From Deltaproteobacteria bacterium (lineage in GTDB: Bacteria > Myxococcota_A > UBA796 > UBA9615), in contig JAGSHC010000024.1 of assembly GCA_023954745.1 (NCBI GenBank), positions 1 to 40,967 of the forward strand: 40,967 nucleotides of DNA, in the 5' to 3' direction. Numbering within the stretch: the first letter of the stretch is position 1; every line of letters begins with the position of its first letter. A model generated the notes under the pieces. It was not told where the DNA came from. It made no database searches and saw nothing but the letters and a program-made list of their open reading frames with translations. Shown here one piece after another: positions 250-37,195 of this stretch. The translations under genes were made by a program, and so were the position numbers.

Positions 250-261
250 TACTGTGTCGTC
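250..261 (+). promoter_or_regulatory. Putative leaderless promoter (TACTGT, 6 nt before ATG 262)
   Basis: TACTGT at 250-255 is followed by 6 nt and then the ATG at 262. No Shine-Dalgarno sequence precedes this ATG. The same TANNNT-N6-start arrangement recurs at eight other genes in the window, which supports both a leaderless transcript and the choice of this start. Confidence 0.55.
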
Positions 262-2910
262 ATGAGCGACGCACTGGTCCTCGACCTCACCCGCATCAGC
301 CCCTCTGACTTCGCGGCGGTGGGCGGCAAGGGCGCAAACCTCGGCGCTCTGACGGCCATGGGCCTCTCGGTGCCCAGCGGGTTCTGCGTCACGACCCACG
401 GCTTTCGAGCGTTCGTCGCCGAGGACGTTGTCTTCGACGAGCAGATCGCGGGGCTCGAGAAGCTCCAGGCTGAAGACATCGAGGGAGCTCGGACGGCTGG
501 CGAGGCCCTGCGCGCTCACCTGACGAGCCGCCCTCTCCCGCACCCCGTCGCGGACGCCGTGCGGGAGGCACTCGCAGGCTCAGACCCCACGCAGGCTTGG
601 GCGGTGCGGTCGAGTGCGACGGCCGAGGACCTGCCAGGTGCTTCGTTCGCGGGCCAACAGGACACCTACCTCAACATCATCGGCGCGGACTCGGTGCTCG
701 AGCACGTGCGCCGCTGTTTCGCCTCGCTCTACACCGACCGGGCGATCCTCTATCGCATGCAGCAAGGCATCCCACACCGCGGAGTCGCTCTTAGCGCGGT
801 CGTGCAGAGGATGGTGCAGCCGCGGTCCTCAGGGATTCTGTTCACTGCAGACCCCGTGAGCGGTCACCGCGGGGTGATGGCCATCGACGCGGGCTTCGGC
901 CTGGGAGAGGCCTTCGTGTCGGGGACGGTGAGCGCCGACCTGTTCCGCATCGACCGCCGCTCTGGGCGAGTCATCGAAGAGGTCCTCGCCACGAAGACCC
1001 ACGCGATCCGCTCCCTACCGGCTGGCGGCACGGAGAACGTCGCCCTGAGCGCGGCGGAGTCCACCAAGGCCTCCCTGACCCCGCCGGAGATCGCGGCGCT
1101 CGTGGCGGCCGGCGAGGCGATTGAGGTGGCGCAGGGCTGCCCTCAGGACATCGAGTGGTGCTTCGACGAGCAGGGACTGCACATCGTGCAGGCACGGCCG
1201 ATCACCTCCCTCTTTCCGCTCCCCACCGAGGGACTCGAGCCCGAGCGACTGTGGTTCTGCTTCAACCACTTCCAGGTGATGACGGACGCCATGCCACCCC
1301 TGGTGTGCGACATATGGCGGTTGTTGATGCCCTTCGGGCGGGAGTTGATTGGAGACCCCCGCCCCGCTCCCTGGGTCCTCGCGGCCGGAGGGCGGCTCTG
1401 GGTCGACATGGGGCCAGCCGCGCGCTTCGGCCCTACGCGCAAGATGATGCTCTTCGCCTTTGGGAAGGTGGAGGCGCTGGCCCAAGGCGCGTTGGCGATG
1501 GTCACCCAGCGGCCGGAGTTCGGGACGGGCCCCAGCGTGTCGGGGCTCGGCGTGGCTCGATTCTTCGGGCCGAAGCTGGCGACCCTGCAGAAGCACCTCT
1601 GGTTGGTGAACCTCGACACGGTGCAGAACCAGAAGAACGCCTGGCTCGACGGGCTGGTCCACCGAGTCCGGGGGACGGTGCAGGCGGGAGACCTGAAGCG
1701 CCGTGTGCTCGGGACCCACATCGAGCTGTCCAACCTGTTCGGGGAGCTTCTGAACATCATCCCGGCGGTGCTGCCGGGGTTCCTCGCCTCTGGACTGCTC
1801 CGGAAGCTCATGCCCGAGCACGGACAGCACATCGACGCGTTGGGTCGGGGCCTTCACGGAAACGTCACGGTGGAGATGGATCTGGACGTAGGCGACCTCG
1901 CCGACACCGCCCACGGCCTCCCAGAGGTGAAGTCGGCGCTGCTCGACGGACGGCCCTGGCAGGACCAGGAGGGGGCCACCGCGTTCCGCGCTGCTCTCGA
2001 CACCTTCCTGGACACCTGGGGGAGCCGCGCCACCTCGGAGATCGACTTCTCGCGCCCCCGATGGAGCGAAGATCCCACCGCGATCCTCAGCGCTGTCGCC
2101 GGGAATCTGGCGACCGGCAAACCCGGCGGGGCTCGGGCGCACCACGCAGAGCTCGCCCGGCGCGGCGAGGCTGCCCAGCGCACCCTCATCGACGCAGGCA
2201 GCAAGGGCATCTTCGGCTGGCTACGGGGTCGAGTCGTCCGACGGCTCACGAGAGCAGTGCGCGCGCTCGCTCCCATGAGGGAGCATCCGAAGTTCGCGAT
2301 CATTCGCATCGGCGCCGCCGTGCGCGAGTTGGTGGAGGAGGTCGGGGTCACCCTCGCTGCCGACGACCGCTTGCTCGCTGCGGAGGACGTGTGGTTCCTG
2401 CAGTGGGACGAGCTCGAGGAGGCGGTGCACGGGTTCGACGACTACCGCGTGGTGGTGGGACAGCGAAAGGCCGAGCACGCGCGCGATCAGGCGCTCTATC
2501 CCCCGCGGGTCATGACCGGCGAGGGAGAGGTTCCTCAGGTGAGCCACGACGCCGACGTCCCGGACGGCGCCCTGGCAGGGACTGCCGCCTCGGCTGGCGT
2601 CGTGGAGGGGATCGCCCGCGTCGTGCGCGACCCCCGCACCGAGGTGCTGCACAAGGGAGAGATCCTGATCGCGCCCTTCACGGACCCGGGCTGGACCCCG
2701 CTCTTCATCAACGCGGCGGGGCTGGTGATGGAGGTGGGCGGGCTGATGACCCACGGCTCCGTCGTGGCGCGCGAGTACGGGATCCCCGCGGTGGTGTGCG
2801 TCCCCGATGCGACCGCCGCCATCAAGACCGGCCAGCGCGTGCGCCTGAACGGCACCGAAGGCTGGGTCCAGGTCCTCGAGGACCCGGCCGAAGCCCCCGC
2901 GTCGGAGTAG
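262..2910 (+). CDS. PEP-utilising phosphotransferase (PEP synthase / rifampin phosphotransferase-like)
   Basis: 882 residues. The N-terminal third is a PPDK/PEP-synthase ATP-grasp domain (VGGKGANLGAL near residue 20, AVRSSATAEDLPGASFAGQ near 115, and the closing QDIEWCFDEQGLHIVQARP near 300). A divergent helical middle of about 450 residues follows, then the swivelling phosphohistidine domain with catalytic His831 in MTHGSVVAREYGIPAV. There is no PEP/pyruvate TIM barrel, so it is not a true PEP synthase. The order and length fit the rifampin phosphotransferase (Rph) family, which moves the beta-phosphate of ATP through histidine to a substrate. The middle domain fixes the substrate, and I cannot tell whether that is rifamycin or another compound. 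An in-frame ATG at 226 is possible, but 262 is preferred because the leaderless signal fits it and the next residues match family N-termini. Confidence 0.8.
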   Translation: MSDALVLDLTRISPSDFAAVGGKGANLGALTAMGLSVPSGFCVTTHGFRAFVAEDVVFDEQIAGLEKLQAEDIEGARTAGEALRAHLTSRPLPHPVADAVREALAGSDPTQAWAVRSSATAEDLPGASFAGQQDTYLNIIGADSVLEHVRRCFASLYTDRAILYRMQQGIPHRGVALSAVVQRMVQPRSSGILFTADPVSGHRGVMAIDAGFGLGEAFVSGTVSADLFRIDRRSGRVIEEVLATKTHAIRSLPAGGTENVALSAAESTKASLTPPEIAALVAAGEAIEVAQGCPQDIEWCFDEQGLHIVQARPITSLFPLPTEGLEPERLWFCFNHFQVMTDAMPPLVCDIWRLLMPFGRELIGDPRPAPWVLAAGGRLWVDMGPAARFGPTRKMMLFAFGKVEALAQGALAMVTQRPEFGTGPSVSGLGVARFFGPKLATLQKHLWLVNLDTVQNQKNAWLDGLVHRVRGTVQAGDLKRRVLGTHIELSNLFGELLNIIPAVLPGFLASGLLRKLMPEHGQHIDALGRGLHGNVTVEMDLDVGDLADTAHGLPEVKSALLDGRPWQDQEGATAFRAALDTFLDTWGSRATSEIDFSRPRWSEDPTAILSAVAGNLATGKPGGARAHHAELARRGEAAQRTLIDAGSKGIFGWLRGRVVRRLTRAVRALAPMREHPKFAIIRIGAAVRELVEEVGVTLAADDRLLAAEDVWFLQWDELEEAVHGFDDYRVVVGQRKAEHARDQALYPPRVMTGEGEVPQVSHDADVPDGALAGTAASAGVVEGIARVVRDPRTEVLHKGEILIAPFTDPGWTPLFINAAGLVMEVGGLMTHGSVVAREYGIPAVVCVPDATAAIKTGQRVRLNGTEGWVQVLEDPAEAPASE

Positions 2911-2967
2911 GCGCGCGAGCCAGCGGACCCGGCGGCGGCTCAGTCGGCCGGGCGATCCCAAGCAGGT

Positions 2968-2999
2968 CCGCCCCGGTCTGGCAAAGCCAGCCGGGGCGG
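2968..2999. terminator. Strong GC hairpin, terminator-like
   Basis: CCGCCCCGG (2968-2976), one unpaired T, CTGGC, loop AAA, GCCAG, CCGGGGCGG (2991-2999) forms a 14-bp stem with a single bulge. It lies 58 bases after the stop at 2910. No T-tract follows, so it may act with Rho or as a 3' end stabiliser. Confidence 0.5.
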
Positions 3000-3086
3000 T
3001 CCAAGAATCAACCGAGCAGCTCAGCGCAGCGCGCTGACCCCCTCAACGCCGAGCACCGCCAAACAGCGGACTCAGCCACCAACCCC

Positions 3087-5100: not shown

Positions 5101-5102
5101 CG

Positions 5103-8143: not shown

Positions 8144-8170
8144 GGGCAGATAGTAACTCAGCTTTGAGTT
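8144..8170 (-). promoter_or_regulatory. Leaderless promoter with overlapping inverted repeat
   Basis: On the minus strand TACTAT (8155-8150) is followed by CTGCCC and the GTG at 8143. The palindrome AACTCA-GCTT-TGAGTT (8155-8170) touches the upstream edge of this hexamer, so a bound repressor would block polymerase. Read as RNA, it would be a short hairpin ending the small ORF transcript. Confidence 0.5.
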
Positions 8171-9985: not shown

Positions 9986-11548
<1,563 letters not shown>

Positions 11549-11708
11549 GTCGACTCCTGTCTGGGACGGGGAGGACGGCGATCCGGGATCGGGCAGGGGA
11601 TCGCCTTGTCCCCGGCGGCACACGATGTGCATCCTCCGGGGGAGGCAGCGCATCCTACATGACGTGTGCGCGTCGCCCGCGCGAGGGCTCGGCGCACGGC
11701 AGCGTGGA

Positions 11709-11735
11709 TATACTGCCGCCAAATCGGAGCCGCCC
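11709..11735 (+). promoter_or_regulatory. Promoter -10 and SD of the beta-helix lipoprotein
   Basis: TATACT at 11709-11714 is a near-consensus -10 element. GGAG at 11726-11729 sits 6 nt before the ATG at 11736. This predicts a short leader of about 15 nt. No convincing -35 is present. Confidence 0.5.
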
Positions 11736-14700
11736 ATGTACTCGTCCGTCCTGGCCAAGAGCCACTTGATCGCCCTACTCGTCCTCGCCATGCCCCTTTC
11801 TGGGTGCCCGGAGGGGGACGACGACGACAGCGCCGCGGAAGAAGGCGCTGTCGTGGTTTCCGGGGTCGGCTCCTTTGACAACATCCAGGACGCCATCGAT
11901 GCGGCCCCGGACTGCGCGAACATCTCCATCGCGCCCGGCATCTACGACGAGCGGCTGCAGATCGACAAGTGCATCACCATCGTCGGGGCGGGCCAGGATC
12001 AGGTCCGAATCACCGGCGGGGGCGGCGGCACCATCGTCGACATCGACCAGGTGGACGGCCCCGTGCTCCTGGCCGGGTTCCAGGTCTACGGCCCCACCGA
12101 TGAGGTCGGCACCATCCGCGGGGTGCGCGTCACGGACTCCACCAACGTCACGCTGAACGACCTGTACATCGGCTTCGAGCCCGACCCGGCGACGAACATC
12201 GACAACGGCAACGTGGGGGTGGACGTCTCGCGCTCCACGGTCGTCATCGCCGACACCACCATTCAGCGCGTCGGCTTCGGCAGCGAGGTGGGCGGCGCCT
12301 GCGTCCAGGCCCAGACCGACTCGGACATCTCCATCGAGGGCAGCACCCTGGAAGGCGGCGGCTCCTTCGGCGTGCACGCCGTGGGCGGCTCGCTCTACAT
12401 GAAGGACACCGAGGTCCTCGCCACCAACCGAAGCACCGGCGCCCAGCAGTTCGAGGCCGATGGTTCTGGCATCTACGCCGAGGACTTCAGCGAGGGCGTC
12501 ACCCTCGACAACGTCACCGTCATGAACGGCAGCTTCGTCGCTGCCTGGATGGATGTCCCCTCCCTGACCGTCAACGGTGGCTCCTTCGGTAGCTTCGCCT
12601 ACGGCGTGTACCTCCCCGGCGACCCCGCCTCGGCGTCGGGCCGCAACATGACCGTCACGGGAGCGACCTTTACCGACCTCGTGCAGCTGGGCGTGCTCTC
12701 CGTCGCCTCCGCCGTGATCACCGGGAACACCTTCGTCCTCGCCACGGGCGCCACGGACCTCGCCCTGAACCGGCCCTACGGCGCGCTGCGGGTCGTGGCA
12801 CCGGGAGGCACCGCGGACATCTCGGGCAACATCATCTCCGGCACCGGGAGCGTCGACTCCATCCGCGTCCTCGGGAACACGAACGACGGCAACGTCTCGC
12901 TGGCGACCATCTCGGCCAACACCGTGGAGAACGTGGTCGCCGCCAACGGCATCCAGGTGGTCCAGGCCGACCAGGCCATCATCGAGGACAACATCGTCAG
13001 CGGTGTAGACCACGCCTACCACATCGACAACGACAACCCAGGGAACAACGGCCTCATCGTCAACGGCTTCGGCCTCGCCTGCTTCCAGGTCGACGACTGC
13101 GCCACCTCGAACAACGAGATCAGCGGCGCCGAGTTCGCAAACCTCGTCATCGTCAACTCGTTCTTCACGTCCGTCGACGACACCCTGAACGGCGCCACCT
13201 GGCGCGCGGCCCAGGTAGAGCAGAGCCAGGGCAGCTTCACGAACCTCACCGTCGCCGACAGCCAGGGTGTGGGCGTGACCTTCATCGACTCGACGGTGGA
13301 GATCGAGACCAGCAGCTTCACCGGCCAGCTGCGCGGCACCACCTTCCGAGACTTCGATGGCAACGAAGACCCCCTCCCCGAGGACATCCAGTACCTGTTC
13401 GGCGGCGACGCCATCGAGAACTTCAGCCAGGGTTCGGCGGCGTTCCTGAGCATCACCGACAGCGTCTTCACGGACAACGTCGACAGCGCCCTCGTCAGCC
13501 AGGACAGCCAGCTGGTCTTCACCGGCAACACCCTGACGAACAACGGCTACGAGTACGACGACGGCAGCGGGATCGTCCTCGGACCGACGTCTGCCCTCCA
13601 GGTGTTCCGCGGCGACCCCCAGGCGGTCAACGGCCCCCTCATCCAGAACAACATCATCGACGGCAACGAGGGCGCCTGGGCGGTGAACATCAACGGCGCC
13701 ATCGGCGCGCAGTTCATCGGCAACACGGTCTGTGGCGGCGACTCGGCGGGCCTGTTCTTCTCTGGGAACAGCGGCGGTCTCATCAGCAACAACTGGATCG
13801 GGACCAGCCCGGCCGGTGACATGACCTCGTGCGATGACCTCGAGTGGACCTACCAGGTCTACCTCTCGGGCAACGACGCCGAGACGGCGCTGGAGACCAT
13901 CGAGGTGTCCGACAACCAGCTCGGCAACGCCGCCGCGAGCTACGGCTTCTTCATGAGCGCGCTCGGCGACTTCCTCTTTGCTGACAACGTCGTGGACGGT
14001 GGCACCATCGCCGGCATCCGGGCCGCGGCCACGCTCCCGTCGGGTCTCACCGGAGACAACGACGGCGACGGCGCGGCGGAATACCAGGGCGACTGCAACG
14101 ACGACGACCCGCTGGTCTGGTGGAACCGCTCGACGCAGATGGGCGCCCCCGAGGTCGCTGGAGACGGCCTCGACAACGACTGCGATGGCATCGCGGACGA
14201 CGGCCTCGACACGTCGGACGGGGACGGCGACGGCTACTCCATCGCCGACGGCGACTGCGACGACGTCGACCCCGCCGTGAACCCCGGTGCCATCGAGATC
14301 GTCGGCAACTTCAAGGACGACGACTGTGCCTTGTGGGCCAGCCCCAACGGGACCGAACAGCCGTCACGCTGGGCCGACCACGACGGAGTGATTCCGGTGC
14401 CGTCCCTGACGCTCGAGGGCAACACGTTCACAAACCTCGGAGCCGGGCTCGACCTCGACGGCGCCCAGGTGGTCCTGAGCAGCGGCGCCTTGGGCGACAA
14501 CCCCAACGTGTTCGACGGGATGGCCGGCAACGGCATGGTCGTCGACGACTGGATCTGGAGCAGCTCGACCCCCGAGCAGCAGGCCGGCTCGATGGTGATC
14601 GAGGAAGGCACGAGCTTCCTCAACGTGGGGGGCGACTGCGTCGTCGTTCAAGGCGAGGGCACGACTGTCGAAGCGGACGGTGTGACCTTCGCAGGCTGCG

Positions 14701-15425
14701 GTGGCAGCGCGGTGAGCATGTACGACGAAGGAGTCGTCACCCTCGAAAGCGTCATCATCGACAGCCCCGGAGACGCGGGCGTGGAGCTCGGCGCAGGGAG
14801 CATCGACATGATTGGCGGCTCCATCGACGGGGCCGCGGACGGCATCGTCAGCCAAGGCGGTGTGCTCGTCGCGGACGGCGTGACCATCTCCAACTCCACG
14901 AACGACGGCGTCCGGGTGCTCAGCTCCGGCGTGTCGACGGGTGACGTGACGATCCTCGGCGGGTCCATCACCGGCTCTCTCGGCGACGGCGTCGAGGTGC
15001 AGACGGGCGACGCCACCCTGGACGCGACCACCATCTCGTCCTCCGGCCTCGCCGGAGTCCATGCCCTCAGCGGCACGGTCTCCGCCGTCAACGTGCTCGT
15101 CAATGGTGCTGATGTCGGCGTGAGCATCGGCGGCGCAGCAGCGGTCACCCTGCTGGGCTGCACCATCGACACCACGGCGGGCCCAGGCGTCGAGCAGGTC
15201 GCAGGCACCCTCTCCATGACGAACGGAACCATCCAGAACTGTGGTGGCGACGGGGTCCTGGTGACGGGCGCCTCCGCCCTGAACATGGACGGCCCAGGCG
15301 TCATGGACAACGCCGGATACGGAATGTCCTGTGGCCCGGCGGTGACGTCGACGACCTGCAGCATCAGCGCATCCAACAACGCCCTGGGCGACCTCGACGG
15401 ATGTGGGTTCTGCACGATTCAGTAG
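11736..15425 (+). CDS. Giant beta-helix surface lipoprotein with MopE-type motifs
   Basis: 1229 residues. The signal peptide ends in LSGC with lipobox Cys24, followed by an acidic linker ([12 protein letters not shown]). Residues about 40-770 and 870-1220 are repetitive right-handed beta-helix (pectate-lyase-like NosD/PbH1 repeats; many 'GNxF', 'ISGN', 'NNxI' turns). The start, [20 protein letters not shown], is typical of the first coil. Between the helical blocks lie two MopE-type putative calcium/metal-binding motifs ([14 protein letters not shown] near 774-790 and [16 protein letters not shown] near 827-845). Such motifs occur in surface proteins of methanotrophs and myxobacteria. It should be anchored in the outer membrane, perhaps for binding or degrading polysaccharide, but no catalytic residues can be named. 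The gene divergent to it encodes the carboxyltransferase. Confidence 0.85.
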
Positions 15426-15463: not shown

Positions 15464-15475
15464 TAGGATGAACAG
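15464..15475 (+). promoter_or_regulatory. Putative leaderless promoter (TAGGAT, 6 nt before GTG 15476)
   Basis: TAGGAT at 15464-15469 then GAACAG, then the GTG start. It lies 38 bases after the stop of the preceding lipoprotein, so the ATPase can be transcribed independently. No usable SD is present. Confidence 0.5.
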
Positions 15476-17182
15476 GTGGCACGTCTCGACACCATCCTGA
15501 GGGCCGTTGCGGCCGAGAACGCCGACGGGCTCCGGCTCGCCTCCGGCTCCCCTCCCGTCATGATCTTCGGCACCTCCGCGGGTCCGATGAAGCTGCCTCC
15601 GTTCACGGACCGGCAGATGATGGAGTTCGTCCGGGAGCTGACGACCCCCGCGGACCTGGCGGAGCTGCACCAGGATGGGTCGATCGAACTCCACTACGAG
15701 TACCTCGACCAGCTTTACTCCTGCACCATCGAGGCCGGGGAGGGCGGTGGGTTCCGGGTCGACTTCGAGGTGCGGAGCCCCGACGACTACACCGACAGCC
15801 AGTACCAGCAAGAGGTGGTGCAGGCCGACCACTTCGGGGACATCGCCATCGTCGATCCGGTGGACTACGGCGGCGCTGGAGCCCGGGGGCCCGCCATGGG
15901 TCCGCTCGATGGCCCTGCGGCAAAGCCCCCTCCGTTCCGGCCCCTGGACCCCCAAGACGGCGGGCTGAAGGACGTCGGGGCGCCGAGCATGGGCTCCACG
16001 CCCACGCGGGGGAGCACTCGCCCGGCAGTTTCGATCCACTACACGCGCGAGGAGGCCACCGCGCCACCGACGTTCGGTGATCAGCTCAGCCAGGAGGCGT
16101 TTCACACGCTGCTGCGGTGGATGGTGGAGCAACAAGCCACCGACATGCACATCACGCCGCGCTTCCCACCGACGCTGCGAGTGGACAACGTCTTCCAGCC
16201 TTCCCAGGCCCGCCAGCTCAGCCCAGAGGAGGTGGAGAGGCTCCTCTACTCCATCCTCAGTCCCCGAGAGCGCGCCCACTTCGAGGAGGAGAGCTCCGTC
16301 GACCTGTCGTACCAGGTCGAGAATCTGGGTCGGTTCCGAATCAACGTGTTTCGCCAGATGTATGGAATGTCGGCGGCGATTCGACTCATCAGCGGCTCCA
16401 TCGGCTCGCTGGATGAGCTGCACCTGCCCCCAGAGCTGCTGTGGATCACGAGCCAGGACACCGGCCTCGTGCTGTTCACTGGGCCCACCGGCTCAGGAAA
16501 GTCGACCACGATGGCTGCCCTCATCGAGCAGATGAACCGGACACGCCAGCTCCACGTCCTGACCCTCGAAGCCCCCATCGAGTATCTGTTCTCGAACCAG
16601 AAGTGCCTCATCCAACAGCGGGAGGTCGGGACCCACACGAAGTCCTTCGAGCAGGGCCTCAAGGACGCGCTTCGTGAGAACCCCGACGTCATCATGGTGG
16701 GCGAGCTAAGGGACTATGAGACGGTGCAGATGGCGATGTCGGCATCCGAGACCGGGCACCTGATCCTCGCCACCATGCACGCCGCGACGACAAACAACGC
16801 CATCTCCCGTCTGATCGACGTGTTCCCCGACTCCCTCAAGGACGGCGCCCGCGCGATGATCTCCGACGTGTTGACCGGGGTCGTGAACATGCGTCTCCTG
16901 ACTCACTCCTCAGGCCGCGGGCTGGTCCCGGTGGTCGAGATGCTCAAGAACAACCACGCCGTCGCGGCCACAATCCGCGAGGGCAAGATGCACCAGCTCA
17001 GGCAGGTCTTGTCGACGTCCTCGACCGAGGGCATGTGGATGTTCGAGCGGTACCTCGCCAATCTCTTCCTCAGGCATGAGGTGTCCTACGAGGACGCCTT
17101 CCGGGTCGCCCCGGACAAGCGCCTCTTCGATCAGATGGTCGACACCGCAAAGAAGGTCAAGGCGAAGGCCCGAGGCAAGTAG
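15476..17182 (+). CDS. PilT-like secretion/retraction ATPase with extra N-terminal domain
   Basis: 568 residues; typical PilT is about 350. The C-terminal 360 residues are a PilT/PilU-type hexameric ATPase. Walker A is GPTGSGKST (336-344), the Asp box is TLEAPIEYLF with Glu365 kept, atypical Walker B is DVIMVGELRD (about 404), and the His box is GHLILATMHA. In the Asp box the usual 'EDPIE' reads 'EAPIE'. A standard PilT N-domain (TDMHITPRFPPTLRVDNVFQ) lies at about 215-310. Residues 1-105 look like a second, degenerate copy of that N-domain (ADGLRLASGSPPVMIFG). A Pro/Gly-rich linker joins the two. PilT powers type IV pilus retraction, but without pilus genes nearby the partner is unknown. Confidence 0.85.
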   Translation: MARLDTILRAVAAENADGLRLASGSPPVMIFGTSAGPMKLPPFTDRQMMEFVRELTTPADLAELHQDGSIELHYEYLDQLYSCTIEAGEGGGFRVDFEVRSPDDYTDSQYQQEVVQADHFGDIAIVDPVDYGGAGARGPAMGPLDGPAAKPPPFRPLDPQDGGLKDVGAPSMGSTPTRGSTRPAVSIHYTREEATAPPTFGDQLSQEAFHTLLRWMVEQQATDMHITPRFPPTLRVDNVFQPSQARQLSPEEVERLLYSILSPRERAHFEEESSVDLSYQVENLGRFRINVFRQMYGMSAAIRLISGSIGSLDELHLPPELLWITSQDTGLVLFTGPTGSGKSTTMAALIEQMNRTRQLHVLTLEAPIEYLFSNQKCLIQQREVGTHTKSFEQGLKDALRENPDVIMVGELRDYETVQMAMSASETGHLILATMHAATTNNAISRLIDVFPDSLKDGARAMISDVLTGVVNMRLLTHSSGRGLVPVVEMLKNNHAVAATIREGKMHQLRQVLSTSSTEGMWMFERYLANLFLRHEVSYEDAFRVAPDKRLFDQMVDTAKKVKAKARGK

Positions 17183-18969: not shown

Positions 18970-18983
18970 CGCGAAAGAGCCTA
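18970..18983 (-). promoter_or_regulatory. Putative near-leaderless promoter (TAGGCT, 8 nt before ATG 18969)
   Basis: On the minus strand TAGGCT (18983-18978) is followed by 8 nt and the ATG. This is the same class as the 6-nt sites but would leave a leader of about 2 nt. Confidence 0.4.
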
Positions 18984-19027: not shown

Positions 19028-19057
19028 TTGACAGGGAACCGTGCACGGCCGTAGTTT
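19028..19057 (+). promoter_or_regulatory. Sigma-70 promoter, TTGACA-N18-TAGTTT
   Basis: A perfect -35 (TTGACA, 19028-19033), an 18-base spacer and -10 TAGTTT (19052-19057) form the clearest housekeeping promoter in the window. It drives the Asp-rich lipoprotein at 19147 with a leader of about 80 nt. It shows that TANNNT works as the -10 in this genome. Confidence 0.7.
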
Positions 19058-19146: not shown

Positions 19147-20307
19147 ATGCGGACTCAGTGGTGGAACCTTCTTCTGCTCTCGCTCGGCCTCGCCCTTGCC
19201 GGTTGCCCCGCGACGGGTGACGACGACGATGCGGCCAACGACGACGACACCGTCGGCAACGACGACGATGCGGCGTGCGCCGGCATCCTGAGCGTCAGCC
19301 CCGAGCAGGACGAGACGGACGTCTTCGGCGACAAGGTCGCGGTCACCTGGGACGCGGTCCCCACGGGCGGCGCGCTCGCCGTGACGGACGAAGCGGGTGC
19401 TGCCGTCGCCGGCTCCACCACGGACGACGACAACGGTCGCACGCTCATCTTCACCGCGGACAGCACGTTCACGGCGAGCACGACCTTCTCGGTCACCATC
19501 AGCTGGGACTGCGAGGCGGACGTCGCCTACGACTTCACCACGGGCCCCTACGGTGACGCCGTTGGCACGGAGAGCGACCTCATCGGTCGTGCCTTCAACC
19601 TCGACCTCGCATCGGCCGACTTCGTCGAGCCTGCGGGCGTCGGCGCGCTCCTCCAGGGCTTCCTGGTCGACGTGTACGTCATCTTCAACCCCACCGCCGA
19701 CAGCGACCTCGCCAACGGCAACATGCACATCGTGGGCGCGGTCGGCGAGCTCGACGGCGGCGACATCGTGCAGGACGAATGCAACGAGACCCTCCCCTTC
19801 ACCGCTGGTGAGGATGGCGAGGTTGGCACCGCCGATGACGCGCCTGCCGACTGGCAGAACCCCGACATGGAGCTCGAGGCTGACTCCCTGGCCCTCTCGG
19901 TGCAGGGTGTCGAGGCCGAGATTCAGGACCTCCTGATCAGCGCCAAGTTCCACCCCGAGCTGACTGGCTTCGTGGGCGGCACCTTCGCTGGCAAGATCGA
20001 CACCCGCGCGCTCGTGGGCCTGCTCGACAGCGAGGACCCGAACGCCATCTGCGACCTCGTCACCGAGACCGTGGGCATCGAGTGCGAGGACTGCGGCGGC
20101 GGTGAGAACTTCTGCCTCGGCGTGGTCGCCGAGAACGTGAGCGGCAACTACCTGGACAACATCCCCGGTGGCCTGACCCTCCGCAGCTGCGTCGACATCA
20201 TCGACGACGCCACCTGCGGCAACGGTTCCTACACCCTCGACGGCGAGGACAACGGCGACATCGACCCGCTGCTCTGCCCCGACTGGGAAGCGCCCGTCGC
20301 GGACTAA
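19147..20307 (+). CDS. Asp-rich lipoprotein with immunoglobulin-like domain
   Basis: 386 residues. The signal is MRTQWWNLLLLSLGLALAGC with Cys20. It is followed by an unusual acidic linker of three Asp runs (DDDD, DDD, DDD, about residues 24-44). Residues 45-140 resemble a bacterial Ig-like (Big_5) domain: 'ILSVSPEQDETDVFGDKVAV' is the common opening, and TADSTFTASTTFSVTI is the edge strand. The rest is unrecognised and contains paired cysteines (ECEDCGGGENFCLG). ATG 19147 is favoured over the in-frame ATG at 19141 because GGAG is 6 nt upstream. It is probably surface exposed and well expressed, given the strong promoter and terminator. Confidence 0.8.
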   Translation: MRTQWWNLLLLSLGLALAGCPATGDDDDAANDDDTVGNDDDAACAGILSVSPEQDETDVFGDKVAVTWDAVPTGGALAVTDEAGAAVAGSTTDDDNGRTLIFTADSTFTASTTFSVTISWDCEADVAYDFTTGPYGDAVGTESDLIGRAFNLDLASADFVEPAGVGALLQGFLVDVYVIFNPTADSDLANGNMHIVGAVGELDGGDIVQDECNETLPFTAGEDGEVGTADDAPADWQNPDMELEADSLALSVQGVEAEIQDLLISAKFHPELTGFVGGTFAGKIDTRALVGLLDSEDPNAICDLVTETVGIECEDCGGGENFCLGVVAENVSGNYLDNIPGGLTLRSCVDIIDDATCGNGSYTLDGEDNGDIDPLLCPDWEAPVAD

Positions 20308-21545: not shown

Positions 21546-21557
21546 CGCGGCAGGGTA
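21546..21557 (-). promoter_or_regulatory. Putative leaderless promoter of rluD (TACCCT, 6 nt)
   Basis: On the minus strand TACCCT (21557-21552), then GCCGCG and the ATG at 21545. No SD is present. Confidence 0.5.
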
Positions 21558-24752: not shown

Positions 24753-26999
24753 ACGCGCCGAAGGAGAGGTGGTGCGCCTTTCCTCGGGATCCGGAGCCGG
24801 TGCGAGCATGTCCTCGACGGTCGTGAGGGCGTCCGGTTCGTCGAGATCCGGATCCGGATCCGGATCCGGATCCGGAAGGGGAAGTCGAAGCGCGAAGCTG
24901 GTGCCGCGGCCCGGCCGACTCTGAATCTCAATCTCCCCTCCGTGGGCGCGCATGATGCGTTCGCAGATGGGCAGCCCCAGCCCCGTCCCGCTCGCCTTCG
25001 TCGTGAAGAACGGGATGAAGAGCTTGCGCGCATCCTCCTCGGTGATGCCGCGCCCCTCGTCAGCGAAGGTGAACTCCACATAGCGAAGCGAGTGCAGACC
25101 CCCGCGGCGCACCCTCACCATCGCTCCGGGCGCCATCGTGCGCAGGGAGTCGACACCCGGTGCCTGAGTCCCTCGTGTGCCGACCCGCGTCCGCACCGTC
25201 AGGGTGCCGCCCTCTTGCTGCATCGCTTCGACGCCGTTGCGTACCACGTTGAGAACGACCTGCTTCAGCTTCTCGATGTCCATGGGCACCGGCGGCAGGT
25301 CCACCCCCGCCTCGTAGTTCACGTGCACGCCCCGCGGCAGTCCCTCCGCCACCACGAGCGCCATGACTCCCTGCATCAGGGTGTCGGGCTGCAGGTCCAT
25401 GCCATGGACCTGCATGGGGCGGGCGTAGTCGAGGAACTGGCTGACGACCCCGTTCAGCCGGTCGACCTCCTCCACGATGATTCCGAGAAACTCCCGTTCC
25501 AGGTCAGCCATGTCGCGGCGATTCAACACCTGCACTGCACCCTTGATGGCACCCAACGGGTTCCGGATCTCGTGGGCCAGACCGGCCGACATCTCACCCA
25601 GCGCCGCCAGGCGGTCCCGCTCCTTGGCCTGCTCGAAGGCCTGCGAGTTGTCCAAGGCGACGGCGAGCTGGTCCGCGAGCTCCTGGAGAGCGCGGAGCTC
25701 CGCGATGGAGAAGCGCGGGGCGCCCGGCTGCGTGCGAAGTCCCCACAGCCCCACGACCGTGGTTCCAATCTGGAGCGGGACACACAGCTCGGCCTGCATG
25801 CTCTGCATGGTCGCCATCACCGACTCGATCCAGTCCGGCCGCGCCGCCCCAGGCCGCTTGACCGCCTCCGACTCCAGCGCCTCCAGCTCGTACGAGGCGC
25901 GCCCCTCGAGGTACCCATCGATGAACGGCCGGTGCGGAATGGCGGCCAGCGGGTCCTGCTCAGGATGGCCCTCCACGCCGCGAAGGCGGTAGTACCCGCG
26001 GTCCTCGTCGTAGAGGTAGACCGTGGCGAGGTCCACCCGCCCCTCCATGTAGCTGCTGTCGAGTAGGGCCTCGAGCAGCGGACCCTCCTCGATGAGCCCC
26101 GGCAACCGCCGCTTCAGCCCTCCGAGAGCCAGCAACCAGTGGACCCGCTCTCGGGAGAAGAGCCGGTTTACGCGGTCTTCGATGAGCTGCTTCAGGGGCT
26201 CGTACAGAATGAGGAGAAGGACCGTGGCGAGCAGGATGTTCACGCCCTCGGCGAAGGGGCCAGTGCGCGGAGACACGAGGCGTGCGACGACCGCGTAGAG
26301 CGTCCCCAGCGCCGTCGTCATGCCGATGAAGACCACGAACCGGGTCGCAATCTCCGCCCGGTCCAGCAGCCGGTTGCTCGTGATGATGATGCCGAGCAAG
26401 TACACGTAGGCGGCCGTCGCGAGGGACCCGAAGGGCGGCAAAAGGAACGGGCTGCCCGTCTGTCCGGCCCAGAGATTCCAGTCGAACAGCGCCATCTCGA
26501 GGGCGATGAGCAGGATGGCGGCGAGCCCCCCCCAGCTCAGGTAGCGCATGCGTCGCCGCTCGTTCTCCAGCTCCAGCTTCTGCACGAGCCGCTGCACCCA
26601 GAACCACTGCACCGCAAGGCCGCCGAACACGAGGATGCTGTTCACCGTGATGGTGACGCGACTCCGGGAGCCAAACCACACGATGATTCCCAGCTGCACC
26701 ATCGCGGCGGCCACCAGAACGACCGTGAGAAGCCTGAAGCGCGGCCGGACCCGGGACAGGAGCTGCTCGTAGACCCGGAACGACGACGGCGCGACGAACA
26801 GCGCGGACGCGAGCAGGGCGTATCGCCAGGCTTCGTCCTTGGTGAGAATCAGCGCGAAGAGGCTGAGAAAGACCACCGAGATGACGCCTGCCATCAAGGC
26901 GTACACCTGATTCAGGGGGTCCCGGGGATTGCGAATGACCGTGGACACCGCCATGGACAGGGCGATGAGCGCAGTGAACAGAGGCGCGACGGTCTCCAC
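24732..26999 (-). CDS. Membrane sensor histidine kinase with GAF domain
   Basis: 755 residues. The first 290 contain about eight hydrophobic segments (for example LMAGVISVVFLSLFALIL, ILLIALEMALF, GVNILLATVLLLILYEPL), a sensor of the membrane-embedded N-terminal type. A GAF domain follows at about 310-450 (ELCVPLQIGTTVVGLWGLRT). HisKA has His476 in SAGLAHEIRNPLGAIKGA. The ATPase domain has NVVRNGVEAMQ, DEGRGI and GTGLGLPICERI. The C-terminal tail contains an Asp-Pro repeat (PDPDPDPDPDLDEPD) from a GATCCG microsatellite. The GTG start is 6 nt from a TAGTCT hexamer that overlaps the divergent selA promoter. No response regulator is adjacent. Confidence 0.92.
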   Translation of the reverse strand: METVAPLFTALIALSMAVSTVIRNPRDPLNQVYALMAGVISVVFLSLFALILTKDEAWRYALLASALFVAPSSFRVYEQLLSRVRPRFRLLTVVLVAAAMVQLGIIVWFGSRSRVTITVNSILVFGGLAVQWFWVQRLVQKLELENERRRMRYLSWGGLAAILLIALEMALFDWNLWAGQTGSPFLLPPFGSLATAAYVYLLGIIITSNRLLDRAEIATRFVVFIGMTTALGTLYAVVARLVSPRTGPFAEGVNILLATVLLLILYEPLKQLIEDRVNRLFSRERVHWLLALGGLKRRLPGLIEEGPLLEALLDSSYMEGRVDLATVYLYDEDRGYYRLRGVEGHPEQDPLAAIPHRPFIDGYLEGRASYELEALESEAVKRPGAARPDWIESVMATMQSMQAELCVPLQIGTTVVGLWGLRTQPGAPRFSIAELRALQELADQLAVALDNSQAFEQAKERDRLAALGEMSAGLAHEIRNPLGAIKGAVQVLNRRDMADLEREFLGIIVEEVDRLNGVVSQFLDYARPMQVHGMDLQPDTLMQGVMALVVAEGLPRGVHVNYEAGVDLPPVPMDIEKLKQVVLNVVRNGVEAMQQEGGTLTVRTRVGTRGTQAPGVDSLRTMAPGAMVRVRRGGLHSLRYVEFTFADEGRGITEEDARKLFIPFFTTKASGTGLGLPICERIMRAHGGEIEIQSRPGRGTSFALRLPLPDPDPDPDPDLDEPDALTTVEDMLAPAPDPEERRTTSPSARFPTNQD
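24845..24874 (-). repeat. GATCCG hexanucleotide microsatellite (5 perfect copies)
   Basis: Five tandem GATCCG units encode alternating Pro and Asp in the C-terminal tail of the histidine kinase. The hexamer keeps frame on expansion or contraction. The tract is also a dense run of GATC sites. Confidence 0.85.
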
Positions 27000-27021
27000 G
27001 GAGAGAGACTACAGTTCGCCC
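27000..27021. promoter_or_regulatory. Back-to-back leaderless promoters (kinase / selA)
   Basis: On plus, TACAGT (27010-27015) is 6 nt before the selA GTG at 27022. On minus, TAGTCT (27011-27006) is 6 nt before the kinase GTG at 26999. The two hexamers share the TA at 27010-27011, so only one polymerase can occupy the site at a time. Confidence 0.6.
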
Positions 27022-28392
27022 GTGCTTCGTGGACTGCCCGCCATCGACAAGCTCCTCGACCACCCCGATTGGGGGGACGACGCGCACCTCCCCCACTCCG
27101 TCCGCCGAGAAGCGAGCCGAGCGGTCGTGGACGCTGTGCGCACCGCGGTTCTGAGCGGCTCCCTCAGCGAGGTGCCCCCGCTCGATGAGCTCGTGCGGCG
27201 AGCTCGTACCAGCGCGCAGCGGACGGCAGGTCCAAAGCTCGTCCGCGTGGTGAATGCGACCGGAGTGATCCTGCACACCAACCTCGGTCGCGCTCCTCTC
27301 GCCGCGGGTGCCCTCGACGCCATCAGGACCATCGCCGGGGGGTACACCAACCTGGAGATGGACCTCTGGTCGGGCAAGCGCGACTCCCGTCACGGCCGAC
27401 TCACCGACACCTTCTCCCGAGTCATCGGGTGCGAGGAGGTCGTCGTGGCCAACAACTGCGCTGCCGCCGTATTCCTGGCCCTGAGCGCCCTCGCGGGCGG
27501 CGGCGCTCAGGTCGTGGTCTCTCGTGGCGAGCTCGTGGAGATTGGCGGCTCGTTCCGCATGCCCGCCATCATGGAGGCCTCGGGCGCGAAGCTGCACGAG
27601 GTGGGGGCCACGAACCGCACGCACCTGCGCGACTACGAGGCAGCCCTCGACGCCGGCGCCCGCATCGTCATGAAGGTGCATCGCAGCAACTTCGCCCAGG
27701 TCGGCTTCACCAAGGAAGTCTCCATCGAGGAGCTCGGCGCCCTCTGTAGCGAGCGGGGCGCGCTGCTCCTCCACGACCTCGGCATGGGCGTGCTCGACAA
27801 AGCCCCCGGCTCTACGCGAGGAGCGGACGGCGCGTCGGAGTCCGTGCGGCGGAGCCTGGACGCTGGAGCGCAGGCGGTGCTCTTCAGCGGCGACAAGATG
27901 CTCGGCGGCCCGCAGGCGGGGATCATCGCCGGCTCCAGCGACGTGCTCACCAAGATCCGGAAGCACCCGGTCATGCGCCTCGTCCGACCAGGAAAGCTCT
28001 GCCTCCTCGCCCTCGAGGCGACGATGCGGGCCTGGGAGATGGACCCCACGGGAGCCCTCCTCCCCGCCGCGCGGATGCTCTCCCGCGACGAGGACGCCCT
28101 CCGCGCGGACGCAGAGTCCCTCGGCGCGCGACTGGCGCGTCTTCACGGCGTCACAGCCGAGGTCGTGCCCACAGCCAGCACCCCTGGTGGTGGCTCGCTG
28201 CCGGGAATGACCCTGCCGTCGTGGGGCGTCGCCGTCACCGTCGAGGGACTGTCCGCCACCAGCACCGCCGCCGCCCTGCGGGAAGCCGAAGCCCCCATCG
28301 TCGCTCGCATCGAAGACGACCGCGTGCTCATCGACGTGCGGACGTTGTTGGCCGGAGACGCCGACGCGGTGGTGCAGGCCCTCTCCGCCTAG
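27022..28392 (+). CDS. selA: L-seryl-tRNA(Sec) selenium transferase
   Basis: 456 residues, the usual length. SelA is a PLP enzyme that converts Ser-tRNA(Sec) to Sec-tRNA(Sec) with selenophosphate. The N-terminal LRGLPAIDKLL matches the SelA opening. NATGVILHTNLGRAPL, YTNLEMDLWSGKRDSRHGRL and the PLP lysine Lys292 in FSGDKMLGGPQAGII are all conserved. The GTG at 27022 is chosen because it precisely follows the leaderless signal and precedes the family's first conserved residues; further upstream the frame would overlap the kinase gene. selB, selC and selD are not in the window. Its presence implies the organism makes selenoproteins. The gene converges on the CPBP gene across a long palindrome. 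Confidence 0.95.
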   Translation: MLRGLPAIDKLLDHPDWGDDAHLPHSVRREASRAVVDAVRTAVLSGSLSEVPPLDELVRRARTSAQRTAGPKLVRVVNATGVILHTNLGRAPLAAGALDAIRTIAGGYTNLEMDLWSGKRDSRHGRLTDTFSRVIGCEEVVVANNCAAAVFLALSALAGGGAQVVVSRGELVEIGGSFRMPAIMEASGAKLHEVGATNRTHLRDYEAALDAGARIVMKVHRSNFAQVGFTKEVSIEELGALCSERGALLLHDLGMGVLDKAPGSTRGADGASESVRRSLDAGAQAVLFSGDKMLGGPQAGIIAGSSDVLTKIRKHPVMRLVRPGKLCLLALEATMRAWEMDPTGALLPAARMLSRDEDALRADAESLGARLARLHGVTAEVVPTASTPGGGSLPGMTLPSWGVAVTVEGLSATSTAAALREAEAPIVARIEDDRVLIDVRTLLAGDADAVVQALSA

Positions 28393-30436: not shown

Positions 30437-30448
30437 GGCCAGAGTCTA
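30437..30448 (-). promoter_or_regulatory. Putative leaderless promoter of the phosphatase (TAGACT, 6 nt)
   Basis: On the minus strand TAGACT (30448-30443), CTGGCC, then GTG 30436. It sits in the 25-base gap after the ALDH stop (30462). Confidence 0.55.
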
Positions 30449-32924: not shown

Positions 32925-33851
32925 CTAGGGCGAGGAGGTGCACTCCAAATGCCAGAGGGTGGCGTTCTCGGCCTCACCCACGTGCAGGACCGAGCGCTCA
33001 TCGTCGTCCCACGCGATGGTCTCGCCCTGGAGCTCTGCACCCACGAGCAGCTCGCGTGTGGCCGCCTGGGAGACCCCGTCCAGGCCGTCGTCGGATACGT
33101 CGTAGTGTCGCGCGTACGTGTACGTGCGCAGGAGCAGGCGGTCTCCATCCGGAGAGAGGTCAGAGCCCGTCACGGTGTCCACGAGCCCGCCCGTTGGGCC
33201 CATGGCCAGAGTCGCCACCCGATCGGCAGCCACCGGGCCCGACCACACAGCCGGGAGTCGATACAGCCACGCATCTCCGTCCTCCCGCTTGGTGATCACC
33301 ACCGGCACTCCGTCGGGTTCGAGGACGAGCGCCTCGGCGTTCTGGGAACCTTCGGGGTAGGTGTAGACGAGCTGCTCCGGGGTGAGACTCAGGTCGAACG
33401 GGCGGTCCTCGTCGGCCAGGTCGGGCTCTCGCACCCGAAACAGGCTGTAGTCGGTCCGGGTCAGCGTGTTGTCTCCGAAGTCGCCGAGCACGAGGCACCA
33501 GTCGTCGGTTCCGTCCGCGCACGAACCGAGGGCCAGGTCCTCGGAGTCGAGGGCGCCCACCCCTTCGAGGGTGAGGGTTCCCAACGTGCGGCCCGCACGA
33601 TCCAGCGCAGTGAGGACCGGCGACGAGCCCGAGTCCTCGTGCACCCAGAAGACCCCCGACGTCCGTCGGGACGCCACGAGGCCCGAGATTTCGTCGAGCT
33701 CCCCATCGTCCACGGTGGCGAGGGAGACGGCCGGACTCCAGGAGGAGCAGGGGCGGTCCTCGCTGGACGCGGTGGTGTCGTCGTCATCCGACCCGTCGGC
33801 GGGACAACCGACCAGGAGCACGGCTACGAGGCTGAGGACGAGGCGTGGCAT
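32925..33851 (-). CDS. Asp-rich lipoprotein, beta-propeller-like
   Basis: 308 residues. The signal MPRLVLSLVAVLLVGC (Cys16) is followed by PADGSDDDDTTASSEDRPC, the same acidic linker style as two other lipoproteins here. The rest carries repeated beta-strand units (DEISGLVASRRTSGVFWVHE, EDLALGSCADGTDDWCLVLG, TGSDLSPDGDRLLLRTYTYA) that look like a YncE/SdiA-regulated-type beta-propeller. No enzymatic residues stand out. ATG 33851 is supported by TACCCT 6 nt upstream and by the compact signal peptide. The divergent gene starts only 22 bp away. Confidence 0.75.
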   Translation of the reverse strand: MPRLVLSLVAVLLVGCPADGSDDDDTTASSEDRPCSSWSPAVSLATVDDGELDEISGLVASRRTSGVFWVHEDSGSSPVLTALDRAGRTLGTLTLEGVGALDSEDLALGSCADGTDDWCLVLGDFGDNTLTRTDYSLFRVREPDLADEDRPFDLSLTPEQLVYTYPEGSQNAEALVLEPDGVPVVITKREDGDAWLYRLPAVWSGPVAADRVATLAMGPTGGLVDTVTGSDLSPDGDRLLLRTYTYARHYDVSDDGLDGVSQAATRELLVGAELQGETIAWDDDERSVLHVGEAENATLWHLECTSSP

Positions 33852-33873
33852 CGCCGGAGGGTAGTCTCTGGAG
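33852..33873. promoter_or_regulatory. Back-to-back leaderless promoters (lipoprotein / secreted protein)
   Basis: On minus, TACCCT (33863-33858), CCGGCG, ATG 33851. On plus, TAGTCT (33862-33867), CTGGAG, GTG 33874. The hexamers share TA at 33862-33863. The arrangement is the same as at 27000-27021. Confidence 0.6.
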
Positions 33874-34404
33874 GTGCGCCACGCCGCCCTCCTCTTCCTC
33901 TGGCTCTTCGCCGGAGTCGCCACCGCAGGTCCGCTGCCAGCGTCGGCCCCCGATGATCCGGATTTGACCCTGGGCTCCACCTGCCGTGGTGGCCCCTCGG
34001 CCGACGCCCTCCTCGCCGCAGTCCCGAAGCGAATCTCCGAACTCGTCGTGCTGTGGCCGCGCGTCGGGCGCACGAACGCTGCGCCGTGCCGGTCTCTCGG
34101 GCGTGTCGGCATTGTCGATCACCGAGGACTCCTCTTGACCATGTCCTTTGTTCTCGGAGAGCCACCGGGGGTGGGTTTCCAGCCCTGGCTCTCACGAGAG
34201 TCACCGGAAGAAGGCGCCCCCCCGCCGGCGGTGCGGAAGGGTCCCGCGCGCAACGAGTACACCTGGATTCCGAGAGACGGGACCCATCTCTACGTGGTGG
34301 TCGCCGGCTCTCCGTCGACCTCTGAGGAGAACCTCCAGGGCGCTACCTCGTTCCTGGAGCGCGAAGACGTGCTCGAGCCACTCTTCGCCCTTGCCGAGCG
34401 ATAG
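33874..34404 (+). CDS. Secreted protein of unknown function
   Basis: 176 residues. An N-terminal signal peptide (MRHAALLFLWLFAGVATAG) is followed by a Pro/Ser-rich spacer and a compact domain (RISELVVLWPRVGRTNAAPC, YTWIPRDGTHLYVVVAGSPS). Two cysteines could form a disulfide. No family is recognised. The GTG start is set by the signal peptide and the TAGTCT hexamer 6 nt upstream; GGAG directly abuts the GTG and is too close to act as an SD. The Cas6-like gene follows after 38 bases. Confidence 0.65.
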   Translation: MRHAALLFLWLFAGVATAGPLPASAPDDPDLTLGSTCRGGPSADALLAAVPKRISELVVLWPRVGRTNAAPCRSLGRVGIVDHRGLLLTMSFVLGEPPGVGFQPWLSRESPEEGAPPPAVRKGPARNEYTWIPRDGTHLYVVVAGSPSTSEENLQGATSFLEREDVLEPLFALAER

Positions 34405-34428
34405 CGCGAGAGATTCGAGGCTGCGTGG

Positions 34429-34442
34429 TACCTTCCGCCGCC
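34429..34442 (+). promoter_or_regulatory. Putative near-leaderless promoter of the Cas6-like gene
   Basis: TACCTT (34429-34434), then 8 nt and ATG 34443. There is no SD. This suggests the gene has its own transcript rather than only readthrough. Confidence 0.45.
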
Positions 34443-35525
34443 ATGGCTGGCCCCGGTTCCGATGACCCCCCGAAGACTCGCACCTGGCGCCGGGGGGACA
34501 ACCCTCCCAGGACGCCCGAGGCACCGTCTCAACGCATCCGCGTCGACGTGCCGCCCGGTGATGCACCCGATCCCGACGACCTCGCAAACCGGGTCCGCGC
34601 TTCGCTCGCAGGATGGCCCGTGGTGGTCCTGCGGGTGGTCGGGAAGACGACCGAGAAGGTTGCGCCCGGCTCCTGGAAGGGTCGTTGGCTGCGCGGGCAG
34701 GTGGGACTCGCCGTCGACGCAACCGTGCACCCCGACATCAGCCGCACCCTCCTCGGCCCCCACGACCCCGGGACCCGCATTTCGGGCGGCGCCTGGGCCC
34801 CGATCGCCGTGCGCAGCTCGATGCTCGCCGACGGCCGTCTCTCGCAGGGAACCGATGTGCGCGCGGAGATCGTGCTGCATGGACGCGCGGCCGAAGAAGC
34901 TGGCTACATGGTTCGGGCGCTGCTCGAGCCCAATCACTCCCGCTTTGCGGAGCCGGGAACCATTGAGTGGACCACCGTGCAGCACCTCACGTGCGACGAC
35001 GACGGGGACCTCCGCTGGCGCAAGAGCACCCCAGGGCAGCGCGCCCCGTTCCTCCCGATGGATCGCATCGAAGAGCCATCGGTCCGTCAGAGCCGACTGC
35101 TGATGACCTTCCTGAGCCCCGCAGCGATCGCCCAGCGAGGCGAGGTCGGCGAGCCCTGGCCGGAGCTGCCCGTCATCGTCGATCGCATGGGGCGCACCCT
35201 GTCGACCTGGCTCAAGCGCAGCAAGCATCGAGGCCCGCTCCTGCCGGACGCGGATCTCCTCCGCGCCGCAGCACAAGCACGCCTCGTGGCCAACCACACC
35301 CGCAGCGTGCAGCTCCCTCCCGGCATGGTCGGCGCCGAGCAGTTCGGTGGAAAACCGGCGCGGCGGGGAGCCCCTCCGCCCCCACCCGAGCCGGTCGCCG
35401 GGCTGGTCGGCAGCGCCACCTTCGCAGGCAGCTTCAAGGGTCTGGTTCCCCTGCTTCGCGCGGCGGCATGGGTCGGCATGGGACCAGGGCGCCAGAACGG
35501 CCTGGGCGAACTCACCGTCCGCTGA
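34443..35525 (+). CDS. Orphan Cas6-like CRISPR endoribonuclease (RAMP)
   Basis: 360 residues. The C-terminal half matches the Cas6 (COG5551/PF10040) pattern: LLMTFLSPAAIAQRG resembles the family's 'l.FlTP.rlk..g', VDRMGRTLSTWLKRSKH follows as the expected helix, and LVGSATFAGSFKGLVPLLRA plus WVGMGPGRQNGLGELTV is the 'G.vty.G.l..l.pLL..g..lgvGkgts.GlG' ending with its Gly-rich loop. The N-terminal part (SSMLADGRLSQGTDVRAEIV, LHGRAAEEAGYMVRALL) fits the first RAMP fold. Cas6 cuts CRISPR transcripts at repeat hairpins. Here there is no array, Cas1/2 or effector in 35 kb on its left or 5 kb on its right, so its RNA substrate is unknown. A Pro-rich insert (APPPPPEP) lies near residue 305. Confidence 0.7.
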   Translation: MAGPGSDDPPKTRTWRRGDNPPRTPEAPSQRIRVDVPPGDAPDPDDLANRVRASLAGWPVVVLRVVGKTTEKVAPGSWKGRWLRGQVGLAVDATVHPDISRTLLGPHDPGTRISGGAWAPIAVRSSMLADGRLSQGTDVRAEIVLHGRAAEEAGYMVRALLEPNHSRFAEPGTIEWTTVQHLTCDDDGDLRWRKSTPGQRAPFLPMDRIEEPSVRQSRLLMTFLSPAAIAQRGEVGEPWPELPVIVDRMGRTLSTWLKRSKHRGPLLPDADLLRAAAQARLVANHTRSVQLPPGMVGAEQFGGKPARRGAPPPPPEPVAGLVGSATFAGSFKGLVPLLRAAAWVGMGPGRQNGLGELTVR

Positions 35526-35612
35526 CTGTCCATTCGAGGCGCAGTGTCCCCTCTTTGTGCCCCTGAGAACGCCCCCCGGCGATGGTAGAGTCACGGTCCT
35601 CGGGAGCCTCTC

Positions 35613-36823: not shown

Positions 36824-36826
36824 GCT

Positions 36827-37156
36827 CTACTCGACGGGCTCCATGGGCTCGTTGGCACCTGGCTCTACCTCGGCGCCGTCCGGCCTCGGGCCGTCCTCGG
36901 AGACGGTGGCGGCATCCATCTCTCGATCGAGCGCCCTGAGCTCCTCGCTGATGGGCTCCTCGTCCTCACCGCGCAGGTACCAGGCCACCATGCGCACGAC
37001 GGCCCAGAACCGGAGCGCGGCCATCCCGATCAGGATGTAGGCGATGATGCGGTTGCTCTCGAGGAAGCCGGCACCCACGAAGCCAAAGACCGCGGACACG
37101 AAGACACCGAACGCCGCCCGCAGCGGCCAGGGCATGTTTCGGACGGGATTCCTCAT
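36827..37156 (-). CDS. Small membrane protein with acidic C-terminus
   Basis: 109 residues, not recognised. Two hydrophobic segments occur (LRAAFGVFVSAVFGFVGAGF and IIAYILIGMAALRFWAVVRM), followed by a charged cytoplasmic tail that ends in a Glu/Pro-rich stretch (EVEPGANEPMEPVE). It is divergent from the glycosyltransferase gene, with 39 bases between the starts; that gap has a GATAAC element on the minus strand and a TATCTT on the plus strand. An in-frame ATG at 37135 is an alternative start. It may be linked to the glycosyltransferase operon by position only. Confidence 0.65.
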   Translation of the reverse strand: MRNPVRNMPWPLRAAFGVFVSAVFGFVGAGFLESNRIIAYILIGMAALRFWAVVRMVAWYLRGEDEEPISEELRALDREMDAATVSEDGPRPDGAEVEPGANEPMEPVE

Positions 37157-37182
37157 CGAGCCCACCGTCGCCCCCGGGTTGT

Positions 37183-37195
37183 TATCTTCCGCGCC
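37183..37195 (+). promoter_or_regulatory. Putative near-leaderless promoter (TATCTT, 7 nt before ATG 37196)
   Basis: TATCTT at 37183-37188 is 7 nt before the glycosyltransferase ATG. No SD is present. Confidence 0.45.

What the first reader, a model, noticed from the sequence alone, without database searches (positions are those of the whole stretch)
250..37195. TANNNT hexamer exactly 6 nt before many starts: pervasive leaderless transcription
A -10-like TANNNT lies 6 nt before starts at 262, 8143(-), 15476, 21545(-), 26999(-), 27022, 30436(-), 33851(-) and 33874, and 7-8 nt before 37196, 34443 and 18969(-). Most lack a Shine-Dalgarno sequence. The same hexamer, with a perfect -35, forms the promoter at 19028-19057, so it acts as a normal -10. 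With a 6-nt spacer, transcription would begin at the start codon. Leaderless genes with this spacing are established in Deinococcus and Actinobacteria; to my knowledge they are not a known hallmark of this lineage. The rule also predicted GTG starts (8143, 27022).
Basis: partly seen in the sequence, partly recalled or inferred. Interest (0 to 1): 0.75.

Follow-up and report, generated by a model that had tools for sequence, protein, structure and literature searches.

The report
Leaderless genes, some sharing one promoter
This uncultured bacterium, probably a myxobacterial relative, appears to start reading about one in five of its transcription-unit genes right at the first codon with no leader, and some back-to-back gene pairs share the very same promoter core; the first part is a known kind of gene start, the second is a neat twist worth testing.

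Summary
A gene caller blind to the motif, run on 658 kb of the same genome (501 genes), finds TANNNT 39 times at 6 nt, 13 at 7, 9 at 8, against about 1.5 per distance elsewhere. Genome-wide, TANNNT-N6-ATG occurs 339 times and TANNNT-N12-ATG 53 times.

Motif genes lack Shine-Dalgarno sequences (7/61 against 200/440) and are almost absent inside tight operons (2/117). The best reading is sigma70-type -10 boxes firing leaderless mRNAs. About 12% of all genes, and roughly one in five genes heading a transcription unit, carry it; Shine-Dalgarno is used too.

The lineage is probably Myxococcota. Leaderless genes were already predicted in 8 of 33 delta-proteobacteria (Zheng 2011), so it is not unprecedented. 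This genome ranks second of 189 sampled.

New here: two window gene pairs (26999/27022 and 33851/33874) start 22 nt apart with two -10 boxes sharing one TA (ANNNTANNNT). The exact symmetric site occurs 8 times in the genome, 0 for the control, always between divergent ORFs. No RNA data exist.

The parts
250..255 (+). -10 hexamer TACTGT, 6 nt before ATG 262 (PPDK_N / PEP-utiliser protein)
8150..8155 (-). -10 hexamer TACTAT, 6 nt before GTG 8143
15464..15469 (+). -10 hexamer TAGGAT, 6 nt before GTG 15476 (PilT-family ATPase); same spacing and GTG start kept in the genus mate G019 (TAGACT)
18978..18983 (-). -10 hexamer TAGGCT, 8 nt before ATG 18969 (laccase-type Cu-oxidase_4)
19028..19057 (+). 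ordinary leadered promoter TTGACA-N18-TAGTTT, upstream of a gene starting near 19147 that has a GGAG just before it
21552..21557 (-). -10 hexamer TACCCT, 6 nt before ATG 21545 (pseudouridine synthase)
27006..27011 (-). -10 hexamer TAGTCT, 6 nt before GTG 26999 (sensor histidine kinase); shares TA 27010-27011 with the next part
27010..27015 (+). -10 hexamer TACAGT, 6 nt before GTG 27022 (SelA)
26997..27024 (.). back-to-back leaderless promoter CAC-N6-ANNNTANNNT-N6-GTG; predicted start sites 23 bp apart
30443..30448 (-). -10 hexamer TAGACT, 6 nt before GTG 30436 (low molecular weight phosphatase)
33858..33863 (-). -10 hexamer TACCCT, 6 nt before ATG 33851; shares TA 33862-33863 with the next part
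33862..33867 (+). -10 hexamer TAGTCT, 6 nt before GTG 33874
33849..33876 (.). second back-to-back leaderless promoter CAT-N6-ANNNTANNNT-N6-GTG
34429..34434 (+). -10 hexamer TACCTT, 8 nt before ATG 34443 (Cas6-like protein)
37183..37188 (+). -10 hexamer TATCTT, 7 nt before ATG 37196 (family 2 glycosyltransferase)

Best explanation
The hexamers are -10 elements read by the housekeeping (sigma70-type) RNA polymerase. With 6 nt between hexamer and start codon, +1 falls on the first base of ATG or GTG, so the mRNA has no leader and must be translated by leaderless initiation; genes inside operons and many single genes use Shine-Dalgarno instead. In some divergent pairs the two -10 boxes overlap by their TA (ANNNTANNNT), so one symmetric site would place polymerase in either direction and start both genes at their first codon. 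Shown: position, statistics, operon and Shine-Dalgarno relations, conservation. Inferred: the start of transcription, leaderless translation, mutual exclusion at the shared site.
For: Sharp peak at d=6 with tail at 7-9 in 501 motif-blind genes; whole-genome 339 at d=6 against 53 at d=12, the same reading phase. Shine-Dalgarno motif in 7/61 motif genes, equal to the upstream control, against 200/440 others, p 1e-7. Motif in 2/117 genes lying within 10 nt of a same-strand neighbour against 59/384 others, p 1e-5. Pyrimidine at -1 enriched, p 0.02, and no TTG start among 61 (not significant). pilT keeps TANNNT-N6-GTG in the genus mate and selA keeps a -10 near its start in many genomes of the class. 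Symmetric sites 8 against 0 control, all between two coding ORFs. The optimal 7-bp step from -10 to start site, and 23 bp as one of the common start-site separations at bidirectional promoters, are in PMC12825309.
Against: No RNA data for this organism. No -35 box is seen at these sites (TTG 16-19 nt upstream in 2/61 against 19/440), so their strength is unknown. Two family mates with lower GC (G020, G021) show little of the signal, so the trait changes quickly.
Confidence: 0.9

Rival explanations
1. The hexamer is a -10 box but transcription starts 1-5 nt upstream of the codon, giving very short leaders rather than true leaderless mRNA.
For: 22 of 61 motif genes have d=7 or 8, and 8 more genes d=9; selA in G020 and G021 has d=10 to its ATG.
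Against: The main peak is at 6, and only one gene lies at 3-5, which fits a start site on the codon.
Confidence: 0.07
2. The motif is an AT-rich translational signal (ribosome access), not a promoter.
For: AT-rich start regions are known in other phyla (PMC3160421).
Against: Fixed T-A-T letters at fixed spacing, absence from operon-internal genes, and the strand-symmetric ANNNTANNNT in divergent pairs make no sense for a ribosome signal.
Confidence: 0.02
3. Artefact of start choice: TAG/TAA upstream stops force the called start.
For: Half of the d=6 motifs are TAR and form an in-frame stop.
Against: The stop-free TAY..T half shows the same peak (19, background 0.9), and d=3 and d=12, in the same phase, do not.
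Confidence: 0.01
4. The shared -10 pairs are chance neighbours, not a used architecture.
For: Only 8 exact sites; weak correlation over the phylum (rho 0.24); genomes without the 6-nt excess show sites equal to control.
Against: 8 against 0 in this genome, all in divergent intergenic gaps; 119 against 66 in other genomes with d6/d12 of at least 1.5; 194 against 132 in Actinomycetota.
Confidence: 0.15

Closest known systems
Leaderless genes with an adjacent TANNNT -10 in Deinococcus-Thermus and Actinobacteria (PMC3160421, PMC12340547, PMC3898074)
   Same: Same hexamer, same position next to the start codon, coexistence with Shine-Dalgarno genes, high GC, poor middle three bases; in Deinococcus the motif was shown by experiment to act as the -10.
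   Different: Here a probable Myxococcota genome, lower share of genes (about 12% strict count against 30-40% in Deinococcus-Thermus); not tested by experiment.
Leaderless genes predicted in delta-proteobacteria (Zheng et al. 2011, PMC3160421)
   Same: 8 of 33 genomes, mean 15.8% of genes; the group then included myxobacteria.
Bidirectional promoters from -10 symmetry (Warman et al., PMC12825309; Nat Microbiol 2021)
   Same: Shared -10 region, divergent start sites at a preferred separation; 23 bp is one of the common ones.
   Different: In enteric bacteria 18 bp is commonest and the two papers read do not mention leaderless genes; here the 23-bp form dominates (8 sites against 2 for the 18-bp form) and both predicted start sites sit on start codons.

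Membership tests
sigma70-type leaderless genes (TANNNT class) | -10 hexamer at a fixed 6-8 nt from the start codon, genome-wide | tested here: met
sigma70-type leaderless genes (TANNNT class) | no Shine-Dalgarno before these starts while other genes have it | tested here: met
   7/61 against 200/440
sigma70-type leaderless genes (TANNNT class) | confined to first genes of transcription units | tested here: met
   2/117 operon-internal
sigma70-type leaderless genes (TANNNT class) | RNA 5' end on the start codon | not testable with these tools
   no RNA data
sigma70-type leaderless genes (TANNNT class) | leaderless mRNA is translated | not testable with these tools
   inferred only from intact conserved genes
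bidirectional promoters (Warman type) | two -10 elements overlapping by symmetry, predicted start sites 10, 18 or 23 bp apart | tested here: met
   ANNNTANNNT at 8 sites, 23 bp
bidirectional promoters (Warman type) | measured transcription in both directions | not testable with these tools
   no RNA data
lineage: Myxococcota | groups with known Myxococcota | tested here: inconclusive
   the same-phylum genome G218 is one contig of 10,327,335 bp with GC 0.72 in the sampled 80 kb, which fits Sandaracinus amylolyticus (10.33 Mb, 72%, PMC5010890); rpoB of relatives lies among the delta groups, away from Acidobacteria and Actinomycetota. Names are hidden, and G000 lacks rpoB and 16S, so this stays an inference.

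The most novel reading that the evidence does not exclude
Back-to-back leaderless gene pairs driven by one shared, TA-overlapping -10 are a selected gene arrangement: the whole 22-nt gap between two start codons is promoter, so polymerase can serve only one gene at a time and the two proteins are expressed in mutual exclusion or balance, in Myxococcota and also in leaderless-rich Actinomycetota.
Probability: 0.45. Interest if true: 0.62.

Novelty: new member of a known kind. Interest (0 to 1): 0.48.

Why it matters
It puts a large phylum with few transcription maps on the list of heavy users of leaderless mRNA: 85 of 189 sampled genomes show a significant excess at 6 nt. Gene starts in such genomes are easily misplaced, and a -10 rule can correct them, including GTG starts. 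The shared -10 pairs are about the smallest divergent promoter possible for two leaderless mRNAs and make competition for one polymerase site directly testable.

Tried and rejected
A first gene caller seeded by ORF length failed in GC-rich genomes and was replaced by one seeded on codon-position GC. SelA gave no close named relative, so it did not name the lineage. The first rpoB trees had wrong reading frames and were redone. The tool's backward-pattern control understates the excess; the d=12 pattern is the better control. The internal in-frame start control excludes TAR by construction, so only its TAY version is used. A -35 box at the leaderless sites was sought and not found. The 18-bp symmetric form was sought: 2 against 0 in this genome, no clear excess seen elsewhere. 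No paper found in the held library treats leaderless genes in Myxococcota.

Full report
WHAT WAS CLAIMED. Twelve start codons in the window are preceded by TANNNT, nine of them at exactly 6 nt, and this was read as pervasive leaderless transcription.

CHECK IN THE WINDOW. All twelve are there. A gene caller that uses codon usage only and never looks upstream chooses ten of those starts by itself.

CHECK IN THE GENOME. The window is contig 48 of a 7.13-Mb, 481-contig assembly. In 658 kb of it, 501 genes with readable upstream DNA give TANNNT counts of 39, 13, 9, 8 at distances 6, 7, 8, 9 and about 1.5 per distance at 15-40; shuffles give a mean of 2.0 and at most 6 at distance 6. Leaving the window out changes nothing (30 of 469 at distance 6). 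Over the whole assembly TANNNT-N6-ATG occurs 339 times and TANNNT-N12-ATG 53 times. The stop-free half of the motif, TAY..T, shows the same peak, so in-frame TAG or TAA is not the cause.

WHY LEADERLESS. Motif genes have no Shine-Dalgarno excess (7 of 61, like the control zone) while other genes do (200 of 440). The motif is nearly absent where a same-strand neighbour ends within 10 nt (2 of 117) and commonest where the upstream neighbour is on the other strand (33 of 168). Counting any start within 90 nt of the called one, 65 of 289 genes that head a transcription unit carry the motif against 7 to 15 at control distances, so roughly one in five. The base before the codon is a pyrimidine more often than elsewhere, as RNA polymerase prefers (general knowledge). 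The sites have no -35 box.

CONSERVATION. The pilT-family gene keeps TANNNT-N6-GTG in the genus mate at 63% protein identity over the aligned N-terminal stretch, but two members of another genus carry TANNNT boxes further upstream. selA has a -10 close to its start in the genus mate and in many members of the class, and a Shine-Dalgarno in some others.

SHARED -10 PAIRS. In the pairs 26999/27022 and 33851/33874 the start codons are 22 nt apart and the two hexamers share their TA, giving RTG-N6-ANNNTANNNT-N6-RTG read on both strands. The exact site occurs 8 times in the genome and 0 times for the backward control, and all 8 lie between two divergent ORFs with positive coding scores, one of them short (73 aa) and weak. 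Of 84 divergent pairs in 658 kb, 8 have gaps of 14-24 nt and none 25-39. Around selA, G020 and G021 keep a shared palindrome AGTGTACACT, while the genus mate G019 has two separate -10 boxes, each 6 nt from its start. In 189 genomes of the phylum, those with d6/d12 of at least 1.5 hold 127 symmetric sites against 66 control sites (119 against 66 without this genome); the rest show no excess. A sample of 101 genomes of the phylum of an Actinomycetota record holds 194 against 132. The 23-bp spacing of predicted start sites is one of the three common spacings of bidirectional promoters in E. coli; the 18-bp form is rarer here, 2 sites.

LINEAGE. The phylum is probably Myxococcota: a same-phylum genome is a single contig of 10,327,335 bp, GC 0.72 in the part read, which fits Sandaracinus amylolyticus (10.33 Mb, 72%), and rpoB places relatives among the delta groups. 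The sampled members of the class look like draft genomes of uncultured organisms. Within the phylum the 6-nt excess is widespread but patchy: 85 of 189 genomes pass z above 4, none below -4, and this genome ranks second. In its own family two lower-GC genera show little.

KNOWN OR NEW. Leaderless genes from TANNNT are established in Deinococcus-Thermus and Actinobacteria and were predicted in 8 of 33 delta-proteobacteria. So the main finding is a new, strong member of a known kind. I found no report of leaderless gene pairs sharing one -10, but the search covered open papers only.

LIMITS. No RNA data. Gene starts are predicted. Relatives were profiled from 17-100 kb each, so their percentages are rough. 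The phylum name is inferred.

Noticed in passing
window 27022-28392 and loci L090-L118: selA seems to carry a -10 box next to its start in many genomes of the class, not only in this genus; it may be leaderless by long inheritance.
   Followed up: partly
window 15476-17182; G000 elsewhere: 22 matches to PilT/PilB-type secretion ATPases in this one genome, which looks like a large set.
   Followed up: no
window 34443-35525: A Cas6-like protein (Pfam CRISPR_Cas6) with no other cas gene recognised among the window proteins scanned; CRISPR repeats were not looked for.
   Followed up: no
G000 assembly: No 16S rRNA and no rpoB found although the assembly is rated 100% complete.
   Followed up: no
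window 11133-15425: A protein of about 1,230-1,430 aa with right-handed beta-helix and MopE-type metal-binding motifs.
   Followed up: no
G112, G186, G225, G145 (other families of the phylum): These genomes have a 6-nt excess comparable to this one (d6/d12 of 4.7 to 8.4), so the trait is strong in several distant families.
   Followed up: no
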